Positions 1,273-23,395 of a stretch of DNA of 50,698 bases are shown here, one piece after another (position 1 is the first letter of the stretch; each line of letters begins with the position of its first letter). Source of the stretch: Oscillospiraceae bacterium. GTDB lineage: Bacteria; Bacillota; Clostridia; Oscillospirales; SIG530. The notes under the pieces were generated by a model that ran no database searches, was not told the DNA's origin, and saw only the letters and a program-made list of their open reading frames with translations. The DNA lies in the NCBI GenBank assembly GCA_015067075.1, contig SVND01000013.1, positions 1 through 50,698 on the forward strand, written 5' to 3'. The position numbers were made by a program, and so were the translations under genes.

Positions 1273-2256
1273 TTACTGTCCGAGAATGATGGAAATGAGC
1301 GACATAAGGCTTTCGTTTTCGCGCTTATTGTAAAGGAAGGGAAGCATACCGCTGGGTCCGAGGTTGCCGTCAGCAACGCCGAGTGCGGCATAGCCTGCAA
1401 GACGGATGGACATTACACCGGCGGCAGAGTCTTCAATACCGATTATGCGGCTCTTATCCTTTTCGCCGAGTCCCATTGCAGTTTCAGCGTAAAGCCACGG
1501 ATGGGGCTTTGCTTCGATCTCGCCCAAAGTGCCTGCCTGACCTTTGCGGATGGCTGTACCTGCCGTAATGATGGCATCGTAAAAATCTACGGGATCACCC
1601 ATGTCAAGAGTTGTGAAAGCGTTGAGTATCTCGGGCCAAGCTTTTTGATAAAGACCTGATGTAACAAGACCTATCTTTACACCATTGTCCTTAAGTGTAT
1701 ATAAAAATTCCTTAAGGTCGGGGGCAGGAGTAAAAGCACCGGGCTTGCCTCGTCCTTGCATTATCTCGTTCATTTCATATTCCGTTATCTCGAAATATTT
1801 ATCAACAGCCTCGGCGAGAGGTGTTTTCGGAGAATATTTACGGATACAGTAGGAAAGATGCTCCGTTACGGAATAGCCTGAAACGTGGGGAAGGTCCTCG
1901 CTTTCAAAGCGGAAGTTCTTGTCGCCCAGCATATACTGCGTAACCTGCTCAATTATCCAGATCCAAAAGCTTTCGCTTCTGACGCTGGTGCCGTCGAGAT
2001 CCATCAAAACGGCTTTAGCAGGTGCTTGGAATTCGGGCTGTTTAAGCTCGTAGATAGCAGGATGACCTGCAGAGGATTTGACGTAAGTGAGCGTTTTATC
2101 CTCGAACTCAATAAGCTGAAGCTTTTTGTCGAGAGTGGAATAAATACCTGTTACGCCGTCCTTGCCGCTTGTGAACAAGCCGTTTTCCGATTGTTCAAGG
2201 GGAATGAGGCATTTTTGCTCCTGCTCGGAGAGAATGCCTATACCGTTAATTTTCAT
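1273..2256 (-). CDS. HAD-superfamily phosphatase, beta-phosphoglucomutase-like, with an N-terminal extension
   Basis: A 327-residue protein. The first 80 residues are not typical HAD sequence; the HAD fold starts at motif I, MDLDGT (D86 nucleophile, D88). The cap domain follows, then motif II (T199-S200 in GLVTSG), motif III lysine K250 in AKPHP, and motif IV IGIEDS (E275, D276). This order is that of HAD subfamily IA, whose members dephosphorylate or isomerise sugar phosphates. It starts 15 bases after the GH2 gene on the same strand, so the pair probably works together on a sugar released by that enzyme. A GAGGAG ribosome binding site precedes the ATG. The substrate is unknown. The N-terminal extension could bind a ligand or be structural. 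Confidence 0.85.
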   Translation of the reverse strand: MKINGIGILSEQEQKCLIPLEQSENGLFTSGKDGVTGIYSTLDKKLQLIEFEDKTLTYVKSSAGHPAIYELKQPEFQAPAKAVLMDLDGTSVRSESFWIWIIEQVTQYMLGDKNFRFESEDLPHVSGYSVTEHLSYCIRKYSPKTPLAEAVDKYFEITEYEMNEIMQGRGKPGAFTPAPDLKEFLYTLKDNGVKIGLVTSGLYQKAWPEILNAFTTLDMGDPVDFYDAIITAGTAIRKGQAGTLGEIEAKPHPWLYAETAMGLGEKDKSRIIGIEDSAAGVMSIRLAGYAALGVADGNLGPSGMLPFLYNKRENESLMSLISIILGQ

Positions 2257-2271
2257 TTTACTTCTCCTCGC

Positions 2272-4710
2272 TTATCTATCCCATTCGTCGAGCCATGTCT
2301 TTACAGCGATATCGGCTGTATCGAATGCTTCTGCAGCCTTGACTGTGATAACACGTGTTTCGCCCTTTTCCATGTCGAAGAAGTTGTCGGAGAAGCTTGT
2401 GTTAGCAAGATCGGGAGTGAGAATATTGACCATACGGGCGAAAGCAGATTTAGCTGTGATGGTGATAGTTGCACACTTGTCGCAGCAACGCTCGATCTTG
2501 ACGTCAAGCTCGGGCTCCTTCCACTGAACGTCCTTCCAAAGGTCTGGATAATAGAAGGTCTTTGTCTTTTCGTTGTTCGCATCGAATTCAGCAACGAGAA
2601 TGTGCTGTGTTCCGTACTCGATCATACCGTCCAAGGCTTCAACAAAAGTGGAAGCGTTGGCTCTTGCGGTGACGTTGATCGTCTTTATAGCGTGGATATT
2701 GCCGTCAACGTCTGTATATTTGAGAGTAAGAACGCCGCTGACGTCGCTTAACGTATCGTTTACAACGTAAAGACCGACGGTTTCCTTGATCTTTGTGATG
2801 ATAGGTGTTACTGGCTTGAATGCACGCTTGGATGCGTAGTAAGCTGCCTTGGGGATAAGGTAGTAGTCAACTATCGCCCATGTGCCGCTGGGCCAGATGT
2901 CGGAGAACATCCAGAACATTGCACCGCCGCAGCGAGCGCGTCTTGCACGGTGAAATTCAGAGTCAGCCTTTACAAATTCACTGTGCAAAGCCATGGACTT
3001 TTTGACAAATTCGTTAAGTCCGTCAAAGCTGCCGAAGAGTATCTCGGCTGCTTCCATCTGCTGTTCAACGAAGGTAGTGCCTGTACCGTCGTAGGGATTG
3101 CGTGTAAAGTGAAGGTCGTAAATATCGTTTACGGGCCAGAGCTTATCTTCGGGAATATACTTTTTGAGAGCTTCTACACGGCAGGAGCCCTGAAGACCGA
3201 CTTCGGACGCAAGAGAAGCGTCGAGATTTTTAAGAACCTCGCGGAAATCATGAAGCTGCTTGGAAGCGCGAGAGGACTGATAGCTGTTTGTATGTGTGTC
3301 GCCTGAACCGAAATCGTTACCGCTGTCGGTGAAGGAATAGGGAGAGGACGGCATATACGGTCTTGTACCGTCGATATGATCGCAAAGGCCGCGAAGGGTG
3401 TAATAAACAAGTCTGTCGCCGCGGCTCTTTGCCTTGCCGAATGCACCTGTCTTTTCGTTGCCGCCTGTGGTTACGAAGAAGGAGGGATGACACTGAAGTC
3501 TGCTTATCTGATATTCAGCTTCTTCGATCATGCGGTCTGCAAATCCGGGATAATCGTCGGGAATATCGGCGCAAGCAAGCTGGAAATCCTGCCAAACGAG
3601 CATACCCTTTTCGTCGCAGGTGTCAAAGAATATATCCTTTTCGTATATACCACCGCCCCAAACACGCAAGCAGTTGTAATTTGCGTCGAGAGCAATATCA
3701 ATTGCTTTTCTGTATTTTTCTTCGGCAATGGCACCTGTCATAATGTCAAGGGGAACCCAGTTTGCGCCCTTGAGGAATACCTTTTCGCCGTTTATCTTGA
3801 ATTGGCAAGCAAACTTGCCTTCATCAATGGGAGACTGGTCAAGCTCAACCGTACGGAAACCGAATCTGCCTGACTTAGCATATGTTTCAACGCCGTCTTC
3901 GATGAGGGTGACTTCGTAATTGTAAAGGTGAGCTTCGCCCATACCAACAGGCCACCAAAGCTTTGCGTTTTCGATGAAGAGGTTGTATGCATTCTTAATG
4001 CCTTCGACGGGGAAAGTCTTGATAACTGTCTGCTCGCCGTCCCAAACCTTAATGCGCAAGAACTTGCCATCTACGTGGTAGTTGTCGAAGTCTTTTGTCA
4101 TATGAATGAAGAAGGATGCTCTGCCGTCAAGGTAGGGGTGAATCATGACTTTGGAGATTTCAGAGCCGTTGCAAACTTCAATGGAAACGCCTTGCCAAAT
4201 ACCCATAGCGGGGAAGTTGGGAGCCCAGTCCCAAGAGAAGTGGCACTGTGCTTTACGCATGAAGATACGCTGTACGTTGAAGCATCCGAAATAGCCTTTG
4301 TCGGGGAACTGCTTTGCGGCTTCTTTTATGGAAATAAGACGGATGGTAAGAGTGTTTTCGCCGACGGAAACAAAATCGTTTATTGTATAGGCATAGCGAA
4401 GGAACATATTATCTGTGCTTCCGATGCTCTTGCCGTTTACAAAGATCTCGGAATATGTATCAATGCCTGCGAAAACCAAAGAAAGTCTGTTTTTAAGCAT
4501 TTCTTCGGTAACTTCAAATTTCTTTTCATAGATCCAATCCTGCTCCGTTACCCATCCGCAAGCATTTGCATTGTCGGAATAGTAGGGATTGGGGATCACG
4601 TTAGCTTCGAGAAGGTCATGATGAATATCACCGGGAACTGTTGCGGCGTATACTTCACCTGTCAAAGCGTTTTTAACTGTCCATTTGCCGTTCAAAGATA
4701 TTGTGTACAT
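2272..4710 (-). CDS. Glycoside hydrolase family 2, beta-mannosidase-like
   Basis: An 812-residue cytoplasmic enzyme with no signal peptide. It has the GH2 order: N-terminal jelly-roll domain (SLNGKW, then VPGDIHHDLL near residues 6-35), immunoglobulin-like domain, TIM barrel and C-terminal domains. The acid/base is probably E419 (TTGGNEKTG) and the nucleophile E503 (LASEVG), 84 residues apart as usual for the family. The VPGDIH motif and the WDWAPNF motif near residue 160 point to beta-mannosidase rather than beta-galactosidase. The ATG at 4710 was chosen because AAAGGA lies just upstream; a longer reading to 4791 would run through the promoter. It is cotranscribed with the HAD gene. The likely role is trimming exo-beta-mannosides from imported oligosaccharides. 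Confidence 0.9.
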   Translation of the reverse strand: MYTISLNGKWTVKNALTGEVYAATVPGDIHHDLLEANVIPNPYYSDNANACGWVTEQDWIYEKKFEVTEEMLKNRLSLVFAGIDTYSEIFVNGKSIGSTDNMFLRYAYTINDFVSVGENTLTIRLISIKEAAKQFPDKGYFGCFNVQRIFMRKAQCHFSWDWAPNFPAMGIWQGVSIEVCNGSEISKVMIHPYLDGRASFFIHMTKDFDNYHVDGKFLRIKVWDGEQTVIKTFPVEGIKNAYNLFIENAKLWWPVGMGEAHLYNYEVTLIEDGVETYAKSGRFGFRTVELDQSPIDEGKFACQFKINGEKVFLKGANWVPLDIMTGAIAEEKYRKAIDIALDANYNCLRVWGGGIYEKDIFFDTCDEKGMLVWQDFQLACADIPDDYPGFADRMIEEAEYQISRLQCHPSFFVTTGGNEKTGAFGKAKSRGDRLVYYTLRGLCDHIDGTRPYMPSSPYSFTDSGNDFGSGDTHTNSYQSSRASKQLHDFREVLKNLDASLASEVGLQGSCRVEALKKYIPEDKLWPVNDIYDLHFTRNPYDGTGTTFVEQQMEAAEILFGSFDGLNEFVKKSMALHSEFVKADSEFHRARRARCGGAMFWMFSDIWPSGTWAIVDYYLIPKAAYYASKRAFKPVTPIITKIKETVGLYVVNDTLSDVSGVLTLKYTDVDGNIHAIKTINVTARANASTFVEALDGMIEYGTQHILVAEFDANNEKTKTFYYPDLWKDVQWKEPELDVKIERCCDKCATITITAKSAFARMVNILTPDLANTSFSDNFFDMEKGETRVITVKAAEAFDTADIAVKTWLDEWDR

Positions 4711-18446: not shown

Positions 18447-19706
18447 ATGGCATACAGCGAGCTGGTAAAGAAATTTGAACGTGTACGCGAATATATGCGT
18501 GAATTTTATGTATACGGGTTTAAAAGCCGTGACGAATTTGATAATAAAAGCGCTCGTTCTTATGATGACGAGCGGCGCAGAATAGACAGCTGGCTCGGAG
18601 AATATCTGAGCTTTCGCCGGACACAGGAAGGGAAAAATGTTTTTTTATCCATTGACAGTCGTGCCATAGAACGTAATCCTTTATACAAAGCATGGAAAAC
18701 GTGTAGCTTTACCGATGGCGATATAACGTTGCATTTCATAATTTTTGATATTTTATATCACGAGAATATTGCTCTTACGCTGTCACAGATAACGGAGAAG
18801 ATAGACACGGAATACTTGGCTCACTTTGATGAACCGATGATTTTTGACGAGTCTACGGTGAGAAAAAAGCTTAAGGAATATGTGGATGAAGGGCTGATAC
18901 ACACGGAAAAATACGGCAAAAAGCTGATGTACAGCCGAATGCCAAGTGTAAAGACGGACGGTATGCAAGATGCAATCGACTTTTTTTCCGAAACAGCACC
19001 CTGCGGTATTGTAGGCTCTTTTCTCATAGACAAAATGAAAACGGCGCCGAGACGAAGCTTTTCTTTTAAACATCATTATATTACAAGCACACTTGACAGT
19101 CAGGTGCTTTGCGATATATTTGACGCGATGGCTGAAAAGCGTGCTATCAGAATAAAGAATAAAAATCCGAAGCTATCGCAGGAAATTGAGCTGACAGTAG
19201 TTCCCGTGCGAGTTTTTATAAGTGTACAAAGCGGACGTCAGTATCTTTTGGGAATACAAATGCAAACAGGCGTATTCAGATCATATAGATTGGATTATAT
19301 TACCGACGTAAAGCTTGAGAATGCTTGCGGAGCATTTGATGAATACAGAAGAAGGCTTGACGAGATACAAAAGCATACGTGGGGTGTTACCATATCCAAC
19401 AAGGGTGGAAAAACGGAGAAGGTCCGCTTCAGCGTTAAATTTGCGAAGAATGAACAGCACATATACGGACGGTTGTTGAGAGAAAAACGGTGCGGCAAGG
19501 TTACGCGCACATCGGAAACTACGGCAAGCTTCGAAGCTGATGTGTACGATATAAACGAAATGATACCTTGGATACGTACGTTTATATGCCGAATAACAGA
19601 GCTTAGCTTTTCAAACAGAGAGCTGGAAAAGCAATTCAAAGAAGATCTGCAAATGATGTATGAGCTTTACGGCGTGGAAGGGGATGAAGCTGATGATGTT
19701 CAGTGA
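18447..19706 (+). CDS. WYL-domain transcriptional regulator (first of a pair)
   Basis: A 419-residue protein. The N-terminal half has winged-helix character (LTLSQITEKI near 110, ESTVRKKLKEYVDEGLI near 132-148), consistent with DNA binding. The central WYL domain spans about 215-290 and contains VVPVRVFISVQSGRQYLLGI and YRLDYITDV; the classical Trp-Tyr-Leu is degenerate here. A C-terminal WCX-like domain follows. WYL proteins bind nucleic acid or nucleotide ligands and often control defence or RNA/DNA damage genes. It overlaps the second WYL gene by 23 bases at most, and the pair precedes the structured RNA, slipin and rtcB. The likely role is sensing RNA damage and switching that locus, which is inference. 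Confidence 0.85.
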   Translation: MAYSELVKKFERVREYMREFYVYGFKSRDEFDNKSARSYDDERRRIDSWLGEYLSFRRTQEGKNVFLSIDSRAIERNPLYKAWKTCSFTDGDITLHFIIFDILYHENIALTLSQITEKIDTEYLAHFDEPMIFDESTVRKKLKEYVDEGLIHTEKYGKKLMYSRMPSVKTDGMQDAIDFFSETAPCGIVGSFLIDKMKTAPRRSFSFKHHYITSTLDSQVLCDIFDAMAEKRAIRIKNKNPKLSQEIELTVVPVRVFISVQSGRQYLLGIQMQTGVFRSYRLDYITDVKLENACGAFDEYRRRLDEIQKHTWGVTISNKGGKTEKVRFSVKFAKNEQHIYGRLLREKRCGKVTRTSETTASFEADVYDINEMIPWIRTFICRITELSFSNRELEKQFKEDLQMMYELYGVEGDEADDVQ

Positions 19707-20598
19707 ACTTTACAGCGCATATTATAATGCAGTGGCGCAGATATTGTCGGAAGCTGTGGCGGAGAAAATGACACAGGACAGAATGAGAAGCATCGTTGAG
19801 GAAAAAGCCTTTTCAGAAAGCGCGATGACAGTTATTCCTGCGCTTAAAAGCGGCAAATGGCAGCTGCTAAACGGTGATATGACGACACCTATAAAGCGTG
19901 AGCCGACGATGCCGTTGACGTTGCTTGAAAAAAGATGGCTGAAAGCCATAATGGCAGATGCAAGAATAAAGTTATTTGACATATCATTGGACGGCTTAGA
20001 GGATGTTGAGCCGCTGTTTACCGCTGATGATATTTACATTTTTGATAAATATGCGGATGGAGATCCATTTGAGGATGAGCATTACATCGGTGTTTTCAAA
20101 ACGATCTTAAAAGCTATACACGAAAAAACGGCGTTAAAAATTGAAATTGAAAATAAAAGCAAAGGCAAAACCCTTATGGCTGTAATGCCGTTAAGGCTGG
20201 AGTTTTCAGAGAAGGATGACAAGTTCAGGCTGATAACTCAAGGCGATTACCGAGGAAACACGGTTAACGTGCGAAAAATACTGTCTTGTGAGCTTTATCA
20301 CGGCGAAATAACCGAGAAAAGATGGCACGACAGAAAGAAAACGCTTGTTTTGGAGCTTCAGGACAGACGTAATACCCTTGAAAGAGTTATGATGCACTTT
20401 GCTCATTTTGAAAAGCAGGCAAGACAGCTTGAAAACGGCAAGTATCGGCTTTCGGTTACATATCAAAAGAGTGACGAGACTGAAATGGTAATACGGGTAC
20501 TTTCTTTTGGACCGTTTGTAAAGGTCGTTGAGCCGAAAGAGTTTGAACAATTGATAAAAAGAAGATTGAAAGATCAAAAAAGTTGCGGACTTTTTTAA
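19684..20598 (+). CDS. WYL-domain protein (second of a pair)
   Basis: A protein of about 304 residues whose start is ambiguous: ATGs at 19684, 19693 and 19696 all follow AAGGGG at 19678. The WYL-like core spans about 145-215 (KIEIENKSKG, MAVMPLRLEFSEKDDKFRL). A C-terminal domain follows with RVMMHFAHFEKQA near 240, of the WCX kind. Unlike its partner it lacks an obvious N-terminal winged helix, so the two may act as a heteromeric regulator with the first supplying DNA binding. It is translationally coupled to the upstream gene and ends at a strong terminator. Paired WYL proteins of this kind are often annotated simply as transcriptional regulators. Confidence 0.8.
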   Translation: MKLMMFSELYSAYYNAVAQILSEAVAEKMTQDRMRSIVEEKAFSESAMTVIPALKSGKWQLLNGDMTTPIKREPTMPLTLLEKRWLKAIMADARIKLFDISLDGLEDVEPLFTADDIYIFDKYADGDPFEDEHYIGVFKTILKAIHEKTALKIEIENKSKGKTLMAVMPLRLEFSEKDDKFRLITQGDYRGNTVNVRKILSCELYHGEITEKRWHDRKKTLVLELQDRRNTLERVMMHFAHFEKQARQLENGKYRLSVTYQKSDETEMVIRVLSFGPFVKVVEPKEFEQLIKRRLKDQKSCGLF

Positions 20599-20616
20599 GT
20601 TCGCAACTTTTTTTCC
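20579..20616 (+). terminator. Rho-independent terminator after the WYL pair
   Basis: AGTTGCGGACTT (20581-20592) pairs with AAGTTCGCAACT (20597-20608), 12 bp with one G-U, followed by a T-run to 20614. It separates the WYL pair from the RNA-like region. Confidence 0.9.
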
Positions 20617-20645
20617 GTGAAAAAGCAGAAAAAATTTGGTAAGAT
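20617..20645 (+). promoter_or_regulatory. Weak candidate promoter for the structured RNA
   Basis: GTGAAA (20617-20622), a 17-base spacer and TAAGAT (20640-20645) each match four of six consensus bases. Transcription would begin near 20652, just before the first predicted helix. A weak core would suit activation by a regulator such as the neighbouring WYL proteins. This is a low-certainty assignment. Confidence 0.3.
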
Positions 20646-20650
20646 GTAAT

Positions 20651-20920
20651 TGCAGCAAGCCCTGTGCGAGTGTTTGATTCACCGCGGTGCGCCGGATGTT
20701 CCGAAGCGTATGCCGGGCATGACTGAGAAAAAGGTGCAATGTATCGATCTTTGCCCACAAATTGTTTTATTATTGCGGGTTCGAATCCTGCCTTGTGCAA
20801 GCCTTGTGTTAGCACAAGCCAATAGGCTGGTTGGTCGCAAGACCGCTCTCATGGGCGAAAGCCCGTTCTGTTCATTAAAGCTGTCACAAATGTACCGAGC
20901 GCCTTGTCTTACAGCAGATA
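20651..20920 (+). ncRNA. Candidate structured non-coding RNA with a tRNA-like T arm, upstream of slipin-rtcB
   Basis: A G/C-richer, gene-free stretch with many helices. A canonical T arm lies at 20775-20791: a 5-bp stem (GCGGG/CCTGC, one G-U) around TTCGAAT. The next seven bases CTTGTGC (20792-20798) can pair with GTGCGAG (20664-20670) as an acceptor-like stem, with three G-U pairs. No CCA is encoded. Downstream are hairpins CTTGTG-TTAG-CACAAG (20803-20818), GGTC-GCAA-GACC (20833-20844) and GGGC-GAAA-GCCC (20853-20864), the last two with GNRA loops, and GCTGT/ACAGC (20880-20915). A normal anticodon arm was not found, so this is tRNA-like rather than a tRNA. Linkage to rtcB recalls tRNA-mimicking Y-like RNAs, but identity is unproven and the ends are approximate. 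Confidence 0.6.
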
Positions 20921-21067
20921 CCGTGCGAGGGAGAAATATGCCAAAAGAATAGTCTTTCCGTATATTGATCCCGACACTTAAGCTTTGAGCCGCAAACGGT
21001 ACATGGCAGCAACAACAAAAATTATCGCAGAAAGCGAGAAATATATATTTTGAAAGGTGGAAAAACA
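20921..21067 (+). other. Leader between the candidate RNA and the slipin gene
   Basis: About 147 bases with no coding signal. No consensus promoter is seen; TATATT near 21043 lacks a -35. The RNA and slipin-rtcB may therefore share one transcript, with the RNA in the 5' leader. AAAGGTGG at 21053-21060 is the slipin ribosome binding site. Confidence 0.4.
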
Positions 21068-22174
21068 ATGAAGATCGTAGTAAATGAAAATGAAAAGGGA
21101 TTTCTTTTTAAAAACGGCCGTTTTGTTAAATTGCTTGACGCAGGTAAATATCATATTTTTGGGGACAATGCAGTTGAAAAGGTCCTGACAAAAGAAATGG
21201 TACATTCCGAAAAATGTACGCTCGAGCAGCTTCTCAAAAATGAAGATGTTTCTGCTCAAACAGATGTCGTAGAGGTAAAGGATGAACAAATTGCCATCCA
21301 TTTCGTTAACGGCAGATTTTTATCCGTTTTGAGACGGGGCAAATATGCGTTTTGGAATACGGATGATAAACATGAATTTCAAATCGTTGATATATCAACG
21401 CCTTACGTTGCTGACGATGTACCAAAGTATATTTTCGGAAAGATACCGCAGATGACGGAGTATATTAAGGTACAGGTCGAGCAGTATCAGAAAGGAAGAT
21501 TGTACTTCGACAAGAAGTTTGTGAAGCTTTTAGAGCCGGGTACATATTATTTTTGGAGAATGGGTGTAAACGTCGATGTAACATTTGTTGATACAAGGCT
21601 TATGCGCATGGATATTGTCGGTCAGGAGATACTTACACAGGATAAGGTATCTGTCCGCATCAATTTTATCTGTAATTACCGTATAACCGATTATATGAAA
21701 ATAGTTACGGAGATCGACGATTATCAGCAGCAAATTCACATCAGTGCGCAGCTTGCATTGCGTGAATTTGTAGGTAGATACAGGATCGACGAGATATTGG
21801 AAAACAAAGACAGACTTGCGCAGTATATGCTCGAGCGGCTCAAGGAAAAAGAAAAGACGCTTTTCGTTGAAATAACGGATGCGGGAGTAAAGGACATAAT
21901 TCTTCCGGGTGAAATACGCGATATAATGAACACGGTGCTTGTGGCTGAAAAGCGTGCACAGGCGAATGTAATAACACGCCGCGAAGAGGTTGCATCAACG
22001 AGATCGCTACTCAATACAGCAAAGCTTATGGATGAAAACAAAACGCTTTATAAGCTCAAGGAGCTTGAATATATGGAGCGTATATGCGAAAATGTGGGTA
22101 ATATCAACTTGAACGGAAACGTAGATGTGCTCACACAGCTTGCGGCTGTATTGCGTCCTTGTGAGACACAGTAA
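21068..22174 (+). CDS. Slipin-family SPFH/Band 7 protein
   Basis: A 368-residue protein. The SPFH domain covers roughly 140-300: VKLLEPGTYYFW, LTQDKVSVRINF and the long helix with LVAEKRAQANVITRREEVASTRSLLNTA (in pieces) typical of slipins and stomatins. Most slipins begin with a transmembrane helix; none is visible here. Instead the N-terminal 160 residues hold three versions of one short beta motif: GRFVKLLDAGKYHIF near 14, GRFLSVLRRGKYAFW near 84 and KKFVKLLEPGTYYFW near 149. The ATG at 21068 follows AAAGGTGG. It ends 12 bases before rtcB, with which it is surely cotranscribed. Slipins beside RtcB have been noted in bacterial genomes, with no settled role. Confidence 0.88.
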   Translation: MKIVVNENEKGFLFKNGRFVKLLDAGKYHIFGDNAVEKVLTKEMVHSEKCTLEQLLKNEDVSAQTDVVEVKDEQIAIHFVNGRFLSVLRRGKYAFWNTDDKHEFQIVDISTPYVADDVPKYIFGKIPQMTEYIKVQVEQYQKGRLYFDKKFVKLLEPGTYYFWRMGVNVDVTFVDTRLMRMDIVGQEILTQDKVSVRINFICNYRITDYMKIVTEIDDYQQQIHISAQLALREFVGRYRIDEILENKDRLAQYMLERLKEKEKTLFVEITDAGVKDIILPGEIRDIMNTVLVAEKRAQANVITRREEVASTRSLLNTAKLMDENKTLYKLKELEYMERICENVGNINLNGNVDVLTQLAAVLRPCETQ

Positions 22175-22186
22175 AAAGGAGGAAAA

Positions 22187-23395
22187 ATGATTAAAGTATC
22201 AGGTGAATATAACGAAGCCGTATGTTATTGCGGAGAGCTTGAACAAAAGGCTTACCGGCAGATTGAAAGCGTATGCAATATGAAGTGTTTTGCCGAAAGC
22301 AAGATAAGAATCATGCCCGATGTCCATGCGGGAATGGGATGCACTATCGGAACGACGATGACCGTTACGGATAAGGTCGTTCCGGGCATGGTAGGTGTTG
22401 ACATCGGGTGCGGTATGGAAACGGTAAAGCTCGCACAAAAAGAAGTGGACTTTGAAAAGCTCGATGCCATTATCCGCGAGAGGATCCCGTATGGCAGAGA
22501 AGTAAGAAGTGAACCTTACAAGCTTTGCGAAATGGTGGAATTGGAAAAGCTTCGCAGTGCTTCAAAGATGAATATTGAGCGTGCGTACAGAAGCGTTGGT
22601 ACGCTGGGCGGCGGAAATCATTTCATTGAAATTGACCGCGGTGAAGACGGCTCGCTTTATCTGGTGGTTCATTCAGGCAGCCGCCATTTGGGTACGGAGG
22701 TCGCAAAATACTATCAAGATGCGGGGTACAAGAAGCTAAAGGGGGATCTGCACCGTGAAATATGCGAAAAAATAGCTAAGATGAAGGAGAATGGGCAATA
22801 TTCAAACATTGCAGATACAGTTGCGCAGATGCGTGCAAACAGCGTAATGGCGACGGGAATACCACGCGATATGGCATTTGTGCAGGGTGAGATGTTTGAC
22901 GATTATATCCACGACATGAAGCTTACACAGCGATTTGCTTCGATAAACCGAGCAGCAATGACGCGTATCATCATGGAAGGAATGAATTTTGAGGAAGTTG
23001 AACGATTTACAACTGTCCATAACTATATTGATACTGATGAAATGATATTACGCAAGGGTGCCGTGTCGGCGAAGGCAGGGGAAAAACTGCTGATTCCGAT
23101 AAATATGCGTGACGGCGCGCTTATCTGCATAGGAAAGGGGAATGAGGATTGGAATTTTTCTGCACCTCATGGGGCGGGTCGGATCATGAGCCGAAACGAT
23201 GCGATGAAAACGCTGTCGTTGGAGCAATACAAGACGGAGATGCAAGGCATATATACAACGTGCGTTGATCGAAGAACGCTTGATGAAGCACCGATGGCGT
23301 ATAAGGATATGACGGATATTGTGGAGCGGATCGAACCGACGGCATATATAAGAGAAAGAGTGAGACCTATATATAATTTCAAAGCATCGGAATAA
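22187..23395 (+). CDS. rtcB: RNA-splicing ligase RtcB
   Basis: A 402-residue GTP- and manganese-dependent ligase that joins RNA 2',3'-cyclic phosphate or 3'-phosphate ends to 5'-OH ends. The family motifs are present: MPDVHAGMGCTIGTT near residue 43, GVDIGCG near 70 (metal-binding Asp and Cys), GGGNHFIE near 143, VHSGSRHLG near 162, TVHNYID near 277 and APHGAGR near 325, which carries the His that is guanylylated in the E. coli enzyme. The length matches the shorter RtcB2-like class. AAGGAGG precedes the ATG. It lies downstream of slipin and the tRNA-like RNA. With no archaeal-type tRNA introns expected, the job is probably repair of nuclease-cut RNA. Confidence 0.95.
   Translation: MIKVSGEYNEAVCYCGELEQKAYRQIESVCNMKCFAESKIRIMPDVHAGMGCTIGTTMTVTDKVVPGMVGVDIGCGMETVKLAQKEVDFEKLDAIIRERIPYGREVRSEPYKLCEMVELEKLRSASKMNIERAYRSVGTLGGGNHFIEIDRGEDGSLYLVVHSGSRHLGTEVAKYYQDAGYKKLKGDLHREICEKIAKMKENGQYSNIADTVAQMRANSVMATGIPRDMAFVQGEMFDDYIHDMKLTQRFASINRAAMTRIIMEGMNFEEVERFTTVHNYIDTDEMILRKGAVSAKAGEKLLIPINMRDGALICIGKGNEDWNFSAPHGAGRIMSRNDAMKTLSLEQYKTEMQGIYTTCVDRRTLDEAPMAYKDMTDIVERIEPTAYIRERVRPIYNFKASE

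What the first reader, a model, noticed from the sequence alone, without database searches (positions are those of the whole stretch)
20651..20920. Structured, tRNA-like non-coding RNA candidate between WYL regulators and slipin-rtcB
The stretch contains a canonical T arm (20775-20791, loop TTCGAAT) with an adjacent possible acceptor stem (20664-20670 with 20792-20798). A series of short hairpins follows, two capped by GNRA loops (20833-20844, 20853-20864). No anticodon arm or encoded CCA was found, and no protein frame is credible. In enterobacteria the rtcB operon encodes tRNA-mimicking Y-like RNAs; a comparable RNA here, with slipin and WYL partners and without Ro60 in the window, may be undescribed. 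It could be a decoy or sensor of cut tRNAs, a substrate of RtcB, or a guide for a slipin complex.
Basis: partly seen in the sequence, partly recalled or inferred. Interest (0 to 1): 0.88.

Follow-up and report, generated by a model that had tools for sequence, protein, structure and literature searches.

The report
tRNA-mimicking RNA of slipin-RtcB repair operon
Between a pair of regulator genes and an RNA-repair operon lies a real, roughly 355-nucleotide structured RNA that carries an inside-out (circularly permuted) copy of a tRNA; it accompanies one kind of slipin gene across many Firmicutes, and relatives occur in E. coli and other Proteobacteria, so it is probably the RNA part of a little-studied RNA-repair complex.

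Summary
The finding is real, larger than reported and partly mis-drawn. Comparative analysis of 31 distinct clostridial slipin loci shows a conserved three-domain RNA (window about 20651-21004) starting at a conserved promoter/operator: (A) a three-way junction, (B) a circularly permuted tRNA-like module (T arm, closed 7-bp acceptor hairpin, D arm, hairpin in the anticodon-arm place), (C) a long irregular stem. All three show strong covariation (domain C: 25 of 32 pairs with double compensatory changes). A model of domain C alone found two further genomes in other classes, and both hits lie directly upstream of a slipin gene; no strong hit lies elsewhere in about 790 genomes. Distant members resemble bacterial Y RNA (YrlA) or even real tRNAs, but the window genome has no Ro60 or RtcA, and genomes with both systems keep a separate YrlA at Ro60. 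From memory, Burroughs & Aravind (2016) reported SPFH/Band-7 repair systems with a 'novel tRNA-like molecule', so this is a new, WYL-regulated, larger variant of a known kind, absent from Rfam. Best mechanism: RNA scaffold of a slipin(-RtcB) ribonucleoprotein, analogous to Y RNA in the Ro60 particle. Function is inferred, not shown.

The parts
18447..19706 (+). WYL regulator 1
   Evidence: Pfam WYL PF13280 E=1.4e-8
19660..20598 (+). WYL regulator 2
   Evidence: Pfam WCX PF25583 E=1.5e-5; 42-56% identical homologues beside the same RNA in most relatives
20600..20619 (+). Conserved operator-like element TTCGCAACTTTTTTTCCGTG upstream of the RNA; likely target of the WYL pair (inferred)
   Evidence: Same place in nearly all order-level loci; only site in the 2.26-Mb genome with up to 3 mismatches
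20640..20645 (+). -10 box TAAGAT of the RNA promoter; start of transcription inferred near 20651
   Evidence: TANNNT at about the same distance from the operator in the relatives
20653..20725 (+). Domain A, three-way junction: P1 (20653-20662 with 20715-20725), P2 (20666-20672 with 20680-20685), P3 (20686-20692 with 20706-20714), P3a (20693-20696 with 20700-20703)
   Evidence: P2/P3 covariation 0/500 shuffles; P1 cognate strands pair far better than swapped ones, z=-11.2; model R2 hits the window once, E=4e-22
20775..20844 (+). Domain B, circularly permuted tRNA-like module: T arm 20775-20791, acceptor helix 20792-20798 with 20812-20818, D arm 20819-20830, hairpin in the anticodon-arm place 20833-20844 (GCAA loop)
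   Evidence: 91% of cells paired, 12 of 14 pairs with double changes, 0/500 shuffles; acceptor swap test z=-10.1; model R3 E=2.5e-10
20853..20864 (+). Second GNRA hairpin (GGGC GAAA GCCC)
   Evidence: sequence; variable among relatives
20890..21004 (+). Domain C, long irregular stem: Pc1 20890-20896 with 20998-21004; Pc2 20906-20915 with 20982-20990; Pc3 20923-20925 with 20975-20977; Pc4 20935-20947 with 20954-20966; conserved GCC, GATACCG and GCC/CCG loop motifs
   Evidence: 32 pairs, 25 with compensatory double changes, 0/500 shuffles, slid controls collapse to 33-47% paired; model R1 E=7e-27
21068..22174 (+). Slipin (SPFH/Band-7 protein), 368 aa from this ATG, with three N-terminal beta units
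   Evidence: Pfam Band_7 E=5e-30; AlphaFold2 models; fold search
22187..23395 (+). RNA ligase RtcB
   Evidence: Pfam RtcB E=2.7e-61; matches solved RtcB with the GCG, GNH, HSGSR/HTGSR-type and HGAGR motifs kept

Best explanation
Shown: a conserved, covarying three-domain RNA with a circularly permuted tRNA-like module is encoded immediately downstream of a conserved promoter and upstream of a particular slipin gene. Inferred: it is the RNA component of a slipin-centred RNA-repair ribonucleoprotein. Induced through the WYL pair (RtcR with sigma-54 in Proteobacteria), the RNA is made together with slipin and RtcB (or RlaP). Domain A, and in Firmicutes domain C, would anchor it to the slipin assembly, while the tRNA-like elbow would present a tRNA-shaped surface that recruits or positions tRNA-handling enzymes such as the RtcB ligase near damaged tRNAs. 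This is analogous to Y RNA, whose stem binds Ro60 and whose tRNA-like module binds an effector.
For: RNA-slipin linkage runs both ways: 19 of 22 slipin genomes in the order sample have domain C, and all 19 strong domain-C hits in 394 genomes are at slipin loci; an RNA-only search of 398 phylum genomes found two new hits in other classes, both directly upstream of slipin. The partner is slipin rather than RtcB: in E. coli and Citrobacter the RNA precedes slipin plus a nucleotidyltransferase (RlaP, PF10127 E=1.4e-96, in E. coli), with no RtcB beside it. RNA-repair context: RtcB here and in Burkholderia and Photobacterium; rtcR divergent in Burkholderia, Photobacterium and Citrobacter, with sigma-54-like sites just upstream of the RNA. 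The module order equals YrlA (RF02553 E=2.4e-6 in L040). Genomes with Ro60 as well carry a separate YrlA at Ro60, so this RNA has its own partner. Spacing from domain C to slipin varies from about 30 to 130 nt, and is about 690 nt with a gene in between in L026/L027/L030, which fits a trans-acting RNA.
Against: No expression or binding data exist here. The RNA is co-directional with slipin and no terminator was recognised between domain C and slipin, so a cis-acting leader is not excluded. One lineage (L028) lost the RNA and kept slipin and rtcB; L016 lacks the T arm; so neither is absolutely required. That slipin binds RNA, and that RtcB binds the module, are inferences.
Confidence: 0.55

Rival explanations
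1. Cis-acting sensor leader: the RNA is the 5' leader of slipin-rtcB mRNA and its tRNA-like part reads tRNA or tRNA-fragment levels to control expression.
For: Directly downstream of the operon promoter, same strand, no terminator recognised between domain C and slipin.
Against: Spacing to slipin varies widely and a gene is inserted in one lineage; the operon already has dedicated regulators (WYL pair or RtcR); no alternative terminator or RBS-masking fold was seen, though none was searched for exhaustively.
Confidence: 0.2
2. Decoy or bait for tRNA-cutting toxins or tRNA-binding enzymes, protecting cellular tRNA.
For: Faithful T-loop/D-loop elbow in nearly all members; anticodon-like loops in L049 (CTGTTAA) and L041 (CTTTTAA); RNA-repair operon.
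Against: In the window and many order-level members the anticodon-place loop is a tetraloop, so there is no anticodon to cut; domains A and C would be superfluous.
Confidence: 0.15
3. A substrate of RtcB: the RNA is cut and religated (for example circularised) by the operon's ligase.
For: Genetic linkage to rtcB; permuted topology.
Against: The RNA persists beside slipin-nucleotidyltransferase pairs without rtcB in E. coli and Citrobacter; no conserved cleavage motif found.
Confidence: 0.07
4. Degenerate tRNA remnants or chance structure with no function.
For: Single-sequence folding energy is not better than shuffles.
Against: Covariation 0/500 in all three domains with slid controls collapsing; conserved across classes and phyla.
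Confidence: 0.02

Closest known systems
tRNA-like RNA of SPFH/Band-7 RNA-repair systems (Burroughs & Aravind 2016, NAR 44:8525; from memory of the abstract, text not held)
   Same: tRNA-like RNA next to an SPFH/Band-7 gene in an RtcB-type repair operon.
   Different: Here a roughly 355-nt three-domain RNA with a circularly permuted module, WYL operator and a domain C seen only in Firmicutes; whether the 2016 paper covers these features could not be checked.
Bacterial Y RNA, YrlA (Rfam RF02553)
   Same: Module order T arm - closed acceptor hairpin - D arm; linkage to RtcB operons; weak model matches in distant relatives.
   Different: No Ro60 gene in the genome, no gathering-score match, several times larger, two extra domains, sometimes two tandem modules, slipin partner.
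Salmonella rsr-yrlBA-rtcBA operon regulated by RtcR (Hughes et al. 2020, PMC7790460)
   Same: Damage-responsive RNA-repair operon encoding a tRNA-mimicking RNA and RtcB; the proteobacterial relatives here also sit beside rtcR and sigma-54-like sites.
   Different: Slipin instead of Ro60/Rsr, no RtcA, WYL pair instead of RtcR in Firmicutes.
tmRNA and two-piece (permuted) tmRNA
   Same: tRNA-like domain with T arm; permutation of tRNA parts (two-piece tmRNA from own knowledge).
   Different: No tag frame, no CCA acceptor end, no gathering-score match.
Eukaryotic vault (major vault protein plus vault RNA)
   Same: The slipin model aligns to MVP from its repeats through the SPFH-like shoulder to the cap helix (model 1-324, Z 11-12.6) and has an RNA partner by genetics.
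   Different: rmsd 7-8 A over that range, higher Z to stomatin and HflK, no Pfam vault match above cut-off, N-terminal units alone only Z 4-4.6 to MVP; vault RNA is not related in sequence as far as known.

Membership tests
Bacterial Y RNA / YrlA (RF02553) | tRNA-like module with T, acceptor and D arms in permuted order | tested here: met
   Covarying T arm, acceptor hairpin, D arm; YrlA model aligns to this module in L040, L041, L039, L038, L008
Bacterial Y RNA / YrlA (RF02553) | Rfam gathering score of 69 bits | tested here: not met
   No match in the window at gathering or at E up to 5 in 20400-21200; best relative 42.7 bits
Bacterial Y RNA / YrlA (RF02553) | Cognate Ro60/Rsr (TROVE) protein in the genome | tested here: not met
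   PF05731 absent from the window genome (genome 95.9% complete) and from 27 of 29 carriers; the other two have a separate YrlA at Ro60
Bacterial Y RNA / YrlA (RF02553) | Size 90-150 nt with a basal stem of the 5' and 3' ends (PMC8394870) | tested here: not met
   About 355 nt from the inferred start to the end of domain C; no such basal stem found; transcript ends not mapped
SPFH/Band-7-associated tRNA-like RNA of RNA-repair operons | tRNA-like RNA adjacent to an SPFH gene in an operon with an RNA ligase | tested here: met
SPFH/Band-7-associated tRNA-like RNA of RNA-repair operons | Homology to the RNA reported in 2016 | not testable with these tools
   Paper and its alignments not held
tRNA gene (RF00005) | Cloverleaf with anticodon and free acceptor end | tested here: not met
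   ARAGORN none; 15.2 of 29 bits; acceptor closed as a hairpin
tmRNA (RF00023) | tRNA-like domain plus tag frame; gathering score | tested here: not met
RtcB RNA ligase operon | RtcB with catalytic motifs | tested here: met
   RtcA absent from the genome
Major vault protein-like cage | Tandem MVP-type repeats, SPFH-like shoulder, cap helix | tested here: inconclusive

The most novel reading that the evidence does not exclude
The slipin assembles a small vault-like cage or ring that holds this permuted-tRNA RNA and the RtcB ligase: a bacterial RNA-repair compartment, functionally parallel to both Ro60-Y RNA particles and eukaryotic vaults.
Probability: 0.18. Interest if true: 0.93.

Novelty: new variant of a known kind. 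Interest (0 to 1): 0.7.

Why it matters
It provides a defined, covariation-supported RNA family (not in Rfam 15) for the SPFH-type RNA-repair systems, with three working covariance models and a named clostridial host (Subdoligranulum variabile). The related locus in about 30% of complete E. coli genomes (1,624 of 5,426) makes the question testable: what is the RNA partner of slipin for, and why would a repair system carry an inside-out tRNA? Tandem permuted and normal-order tRNA-like modules in relatives also give a natural series for how tRNAs are recast as scaffold RNAs.

Tried and rejected
Single-sequence folding of 20640-20960: no better than shuffles. Rfam scans of the window and relatives: no family at gathering score for the clostridial RNA. 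Genome scan by peptide patterns gave only three loci; whole-genome searches replaced it. Phage search with slipin: no match at E 1e-8. mafft-qinsi gave no alignment in the box; alignments are plain MAFFT on trimmed domains, so P1 was tested without alignment by swapping strands. A separate test on 5-nt flanks of P3 was weak (z=-2.2); P3 rests. One row of alignment A3 (L021) was cut 9 nt short at its 5' end by mistake; it only lowers the counts. Hairpin energy in the anticodon-arm place is only weakly better than shuffles (mean z about -1.1), and region boundaries there were approximate. Vault hypothesis: whole model encouraging, N-terminal part alone weak, so kept as a lead. The domain C model finds nothing in the proteobacterial loci, and domain A is recovered by model there only in Photobacterium. 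Two weak domain-C hits (E about 0.003) are at chance level for 394 genomes and were not followed.

Full report
WHAT IS THERE. The window comes from a 2.26-Mb clostridial genome (relatives are Oscillospiraceae/Clostridia). The locus reads WYL1 - WYL2 - [RNA] - slipin - rtcB, all on the + strand. No Rfam family reaches its gathering score, ARAGORN finds no tRNA or tmRNA, and single-sequence folding is no better than shuffles (z = -0.02). The question therefore had to be settled by comparison.

CONSERVATION. Using the slipin as a hook, I collected relatives 45-69% identical from searches of 147, 394 and 391 genomes and one contig collection. Upstream of slipin, 32 loci (31 distinct; L017 and L035 are the same contig) hold the same layout: in most order-level loci the element TTCGCA(A/G)CTTTTTTTCCGTG, then TANNNT (-10), then a 350-450 nt RNA, then slipin. 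L028 is a natural precise deletion: promoter joined to the next gene, RNA gone. The operator-like element occurs once in the window genome, so the WYL pair may serve only this operon (inference).

STRUCTURE. Domain A is a three-way junction (P1, P2, P3 with P3a), visible in the individual folds of many sequences. P2/P3/P3a: 92.8% of cells paired, 9 of 16 pairs with double changes, 0/500 shuffles. P1 was tested without alignment: cognate strands pair at -13.95 kcal/mol against -7.4 for swapped strands, 0/20,000 permutations. Domain B is tRNA-like but permuted: T arm, then acceptor 3' strand, loop, acceptor 5' strand, then D arm, then a hairpin where the anticodon arm belongs. In the window the acceptor helix is 7 perfect pairs (20792-20798 with 20812-20818). 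91% of cells are paired, 12 of 14 pairs have double changes, 0/500 shuffles. Domain C is a long irregular stem with invariant loop motifs: 32 pairs, 25 with double compensatory changes, 90.9% of cells paired against 33-47% when slid, 0/500 shuffles. All 49 pairs I list by hand for domains A and B plus the second GNRA hairpin are standard pairs in the window.

INDEPENDENT VALIDATION. A covariance model of domain C alone (R1), searched over 398 genomes of the phylum without any protein information, gave four hits: the window genome, one known carrier, and two new genomes from other classes; both new hits lie directly upstream of a slipin 43-45% identical. In 394 genomes of the order, all 19 strong hits are the slipin loci already known; two hits near E = 0.003 are at chance level. 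A held-out named locus, Subdoligranulum variabile (L052), is found by all three models: R1 9e-23, R2 1e-22, R3 3e-10.

REACH AND DIVERSITY. In L038-L041 there are two tandem permuted modules; the first has a canonical D arm (TAGCTCAGCGGCAGAGC in L038) and scores against YrlA RF02553 at up to E = 2.4e-6, below Rfam's cut-off. L049 carries a complete permuted tRNA including an anticodon arm CTCGA-CTGTTAA-TCGAG. Slipin homologues about 31-34% identical in Proteobacteria also have a related RNA upstream: the domain A model finds Photobacterium (E = 5e-7) and the module model finds E. coli (E = 1.6e-5). In Burkholderia and Photobacterium the tRNA-like parts stand in normal order and score 44-54 bits as tRNA. 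Those loci sit beside rtcR, slipin and rtcB; E. coli and Citrobacter have slipin followed by a nucleotidyltransferase (RlaP in E. coli), with rtcR divergent in Citrobacter. Sigma-54-like sites precede the RNA in E. coli, Burkholderia and Photobacterium (5 matches in 92.8 kb scanned, three of them at these places); Citrobacter has a near match that the pattern missed. RtcR is reported to respond to tRNA fragments (Hughes et al. 2020, PMC7790460).

PARTNER. TROVE/Ro60 is absent from the window genome and 27 of 29 carriers. The two carriers with Ro60 have a separate YrlA beside Ro60. RtcA is absent. Linkage is tighter to slipin than to RtcB. The slipin model (pLDDT 84.6) has three N-terminal beta units, an SPFH domain and a long helix. 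The SPFH part matches stomatin best (Z about 16); among families matched, major vault protein is the one aligned from the first repeat to the helix (model 1-324, Z 11-12.6, rmsd 7-8 A). The N-terminal part alone gives only Z 4-6, unit by unit, to the beta subdomain of SPFH proteins and to MVP repeats. This is a lead, not a membership.

MECHANISM. Shown: a conserved RNA, its fold, its permuted tRNA module, its linkage to slipin, and the RNA-repair context. Inferred: it is the scaffold RNA of a slipin-centred repair particle, the non-tRNA domains binding slipin and the tRNA-like elbow recruiting or positioning tRNA enzymes, as YrlA does for Ro60 and PNPase (review PMC8394870). The variable distance to slipin and the inserted gene in L026/L027/L030 argue against pure cis control. 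A bait for anticodon nucleases is unlikely for this copy, which has a GNRA loop there, but possible for L049-like members.

PRIOR ART. From memory, the abstract of Burroughs & Aravind 2016 (NAR 44:8525) names SPFH/Band-7 modules with a cognate 'novel tRNA-like molecule'. The paper is not held, so I cannot say which of the present features it covers. Rfam 15 has no family for this RNA, and the held literature gave no account of it. I therefore rate it a new variant of a known kind.

Noticed in passing
L028 (G325), upstream of slipin: Natural precise loss of the whole RNA while operator, promoter, slipin and rtcB remain.
   Followed up: partly
L026, L027, L030, between the RNA and slipin; also L028: An extra open frame of about 212 aa with no Pfam match sits between the RNA and slipin in one lineage.
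   Followed up: partly
L049 about 1692-1792 (- strand); L041 about 2971-3048 (- strand): Permuted tRNA modules with full anticodon-like loops (CTGTTAA, CTTTTAA), suggesting origin from real tRNAs.
   Followed up: partly
L053 5662-5799; L051 5660-5729: Normal-order tRNA-like modules (44-54 bits as tRNA) inside the slipin RNA of Photobacterium and Burkholderia; one Photobacterium loop, TTCATAG, would read CAU.
   Followed up: partly
L054 6663-8416: In E. coli the slipin-RlaP pair is followed by a zeta-toxin-family gene on the opposite strand; locus present in about 30% of complete genomes.
   Followed up: no
L048 1682-3127: Slipin whose N-terminal beta-repeat part appears duplicated, i.e. more tandem units than in the window.
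   Followed up: no
window 20576-20615: Terminator-like hairpin at the end of WYL2 overlaps the conserved operator-like element, so one sequence may serve both.
   Followed up: partly
L017 1090-1140 and 3591-3615: Two copies of the operator-like element, one right after WYL2 and one upstream of the RNA, with about 2.5 kb between them.
   Followed up: no
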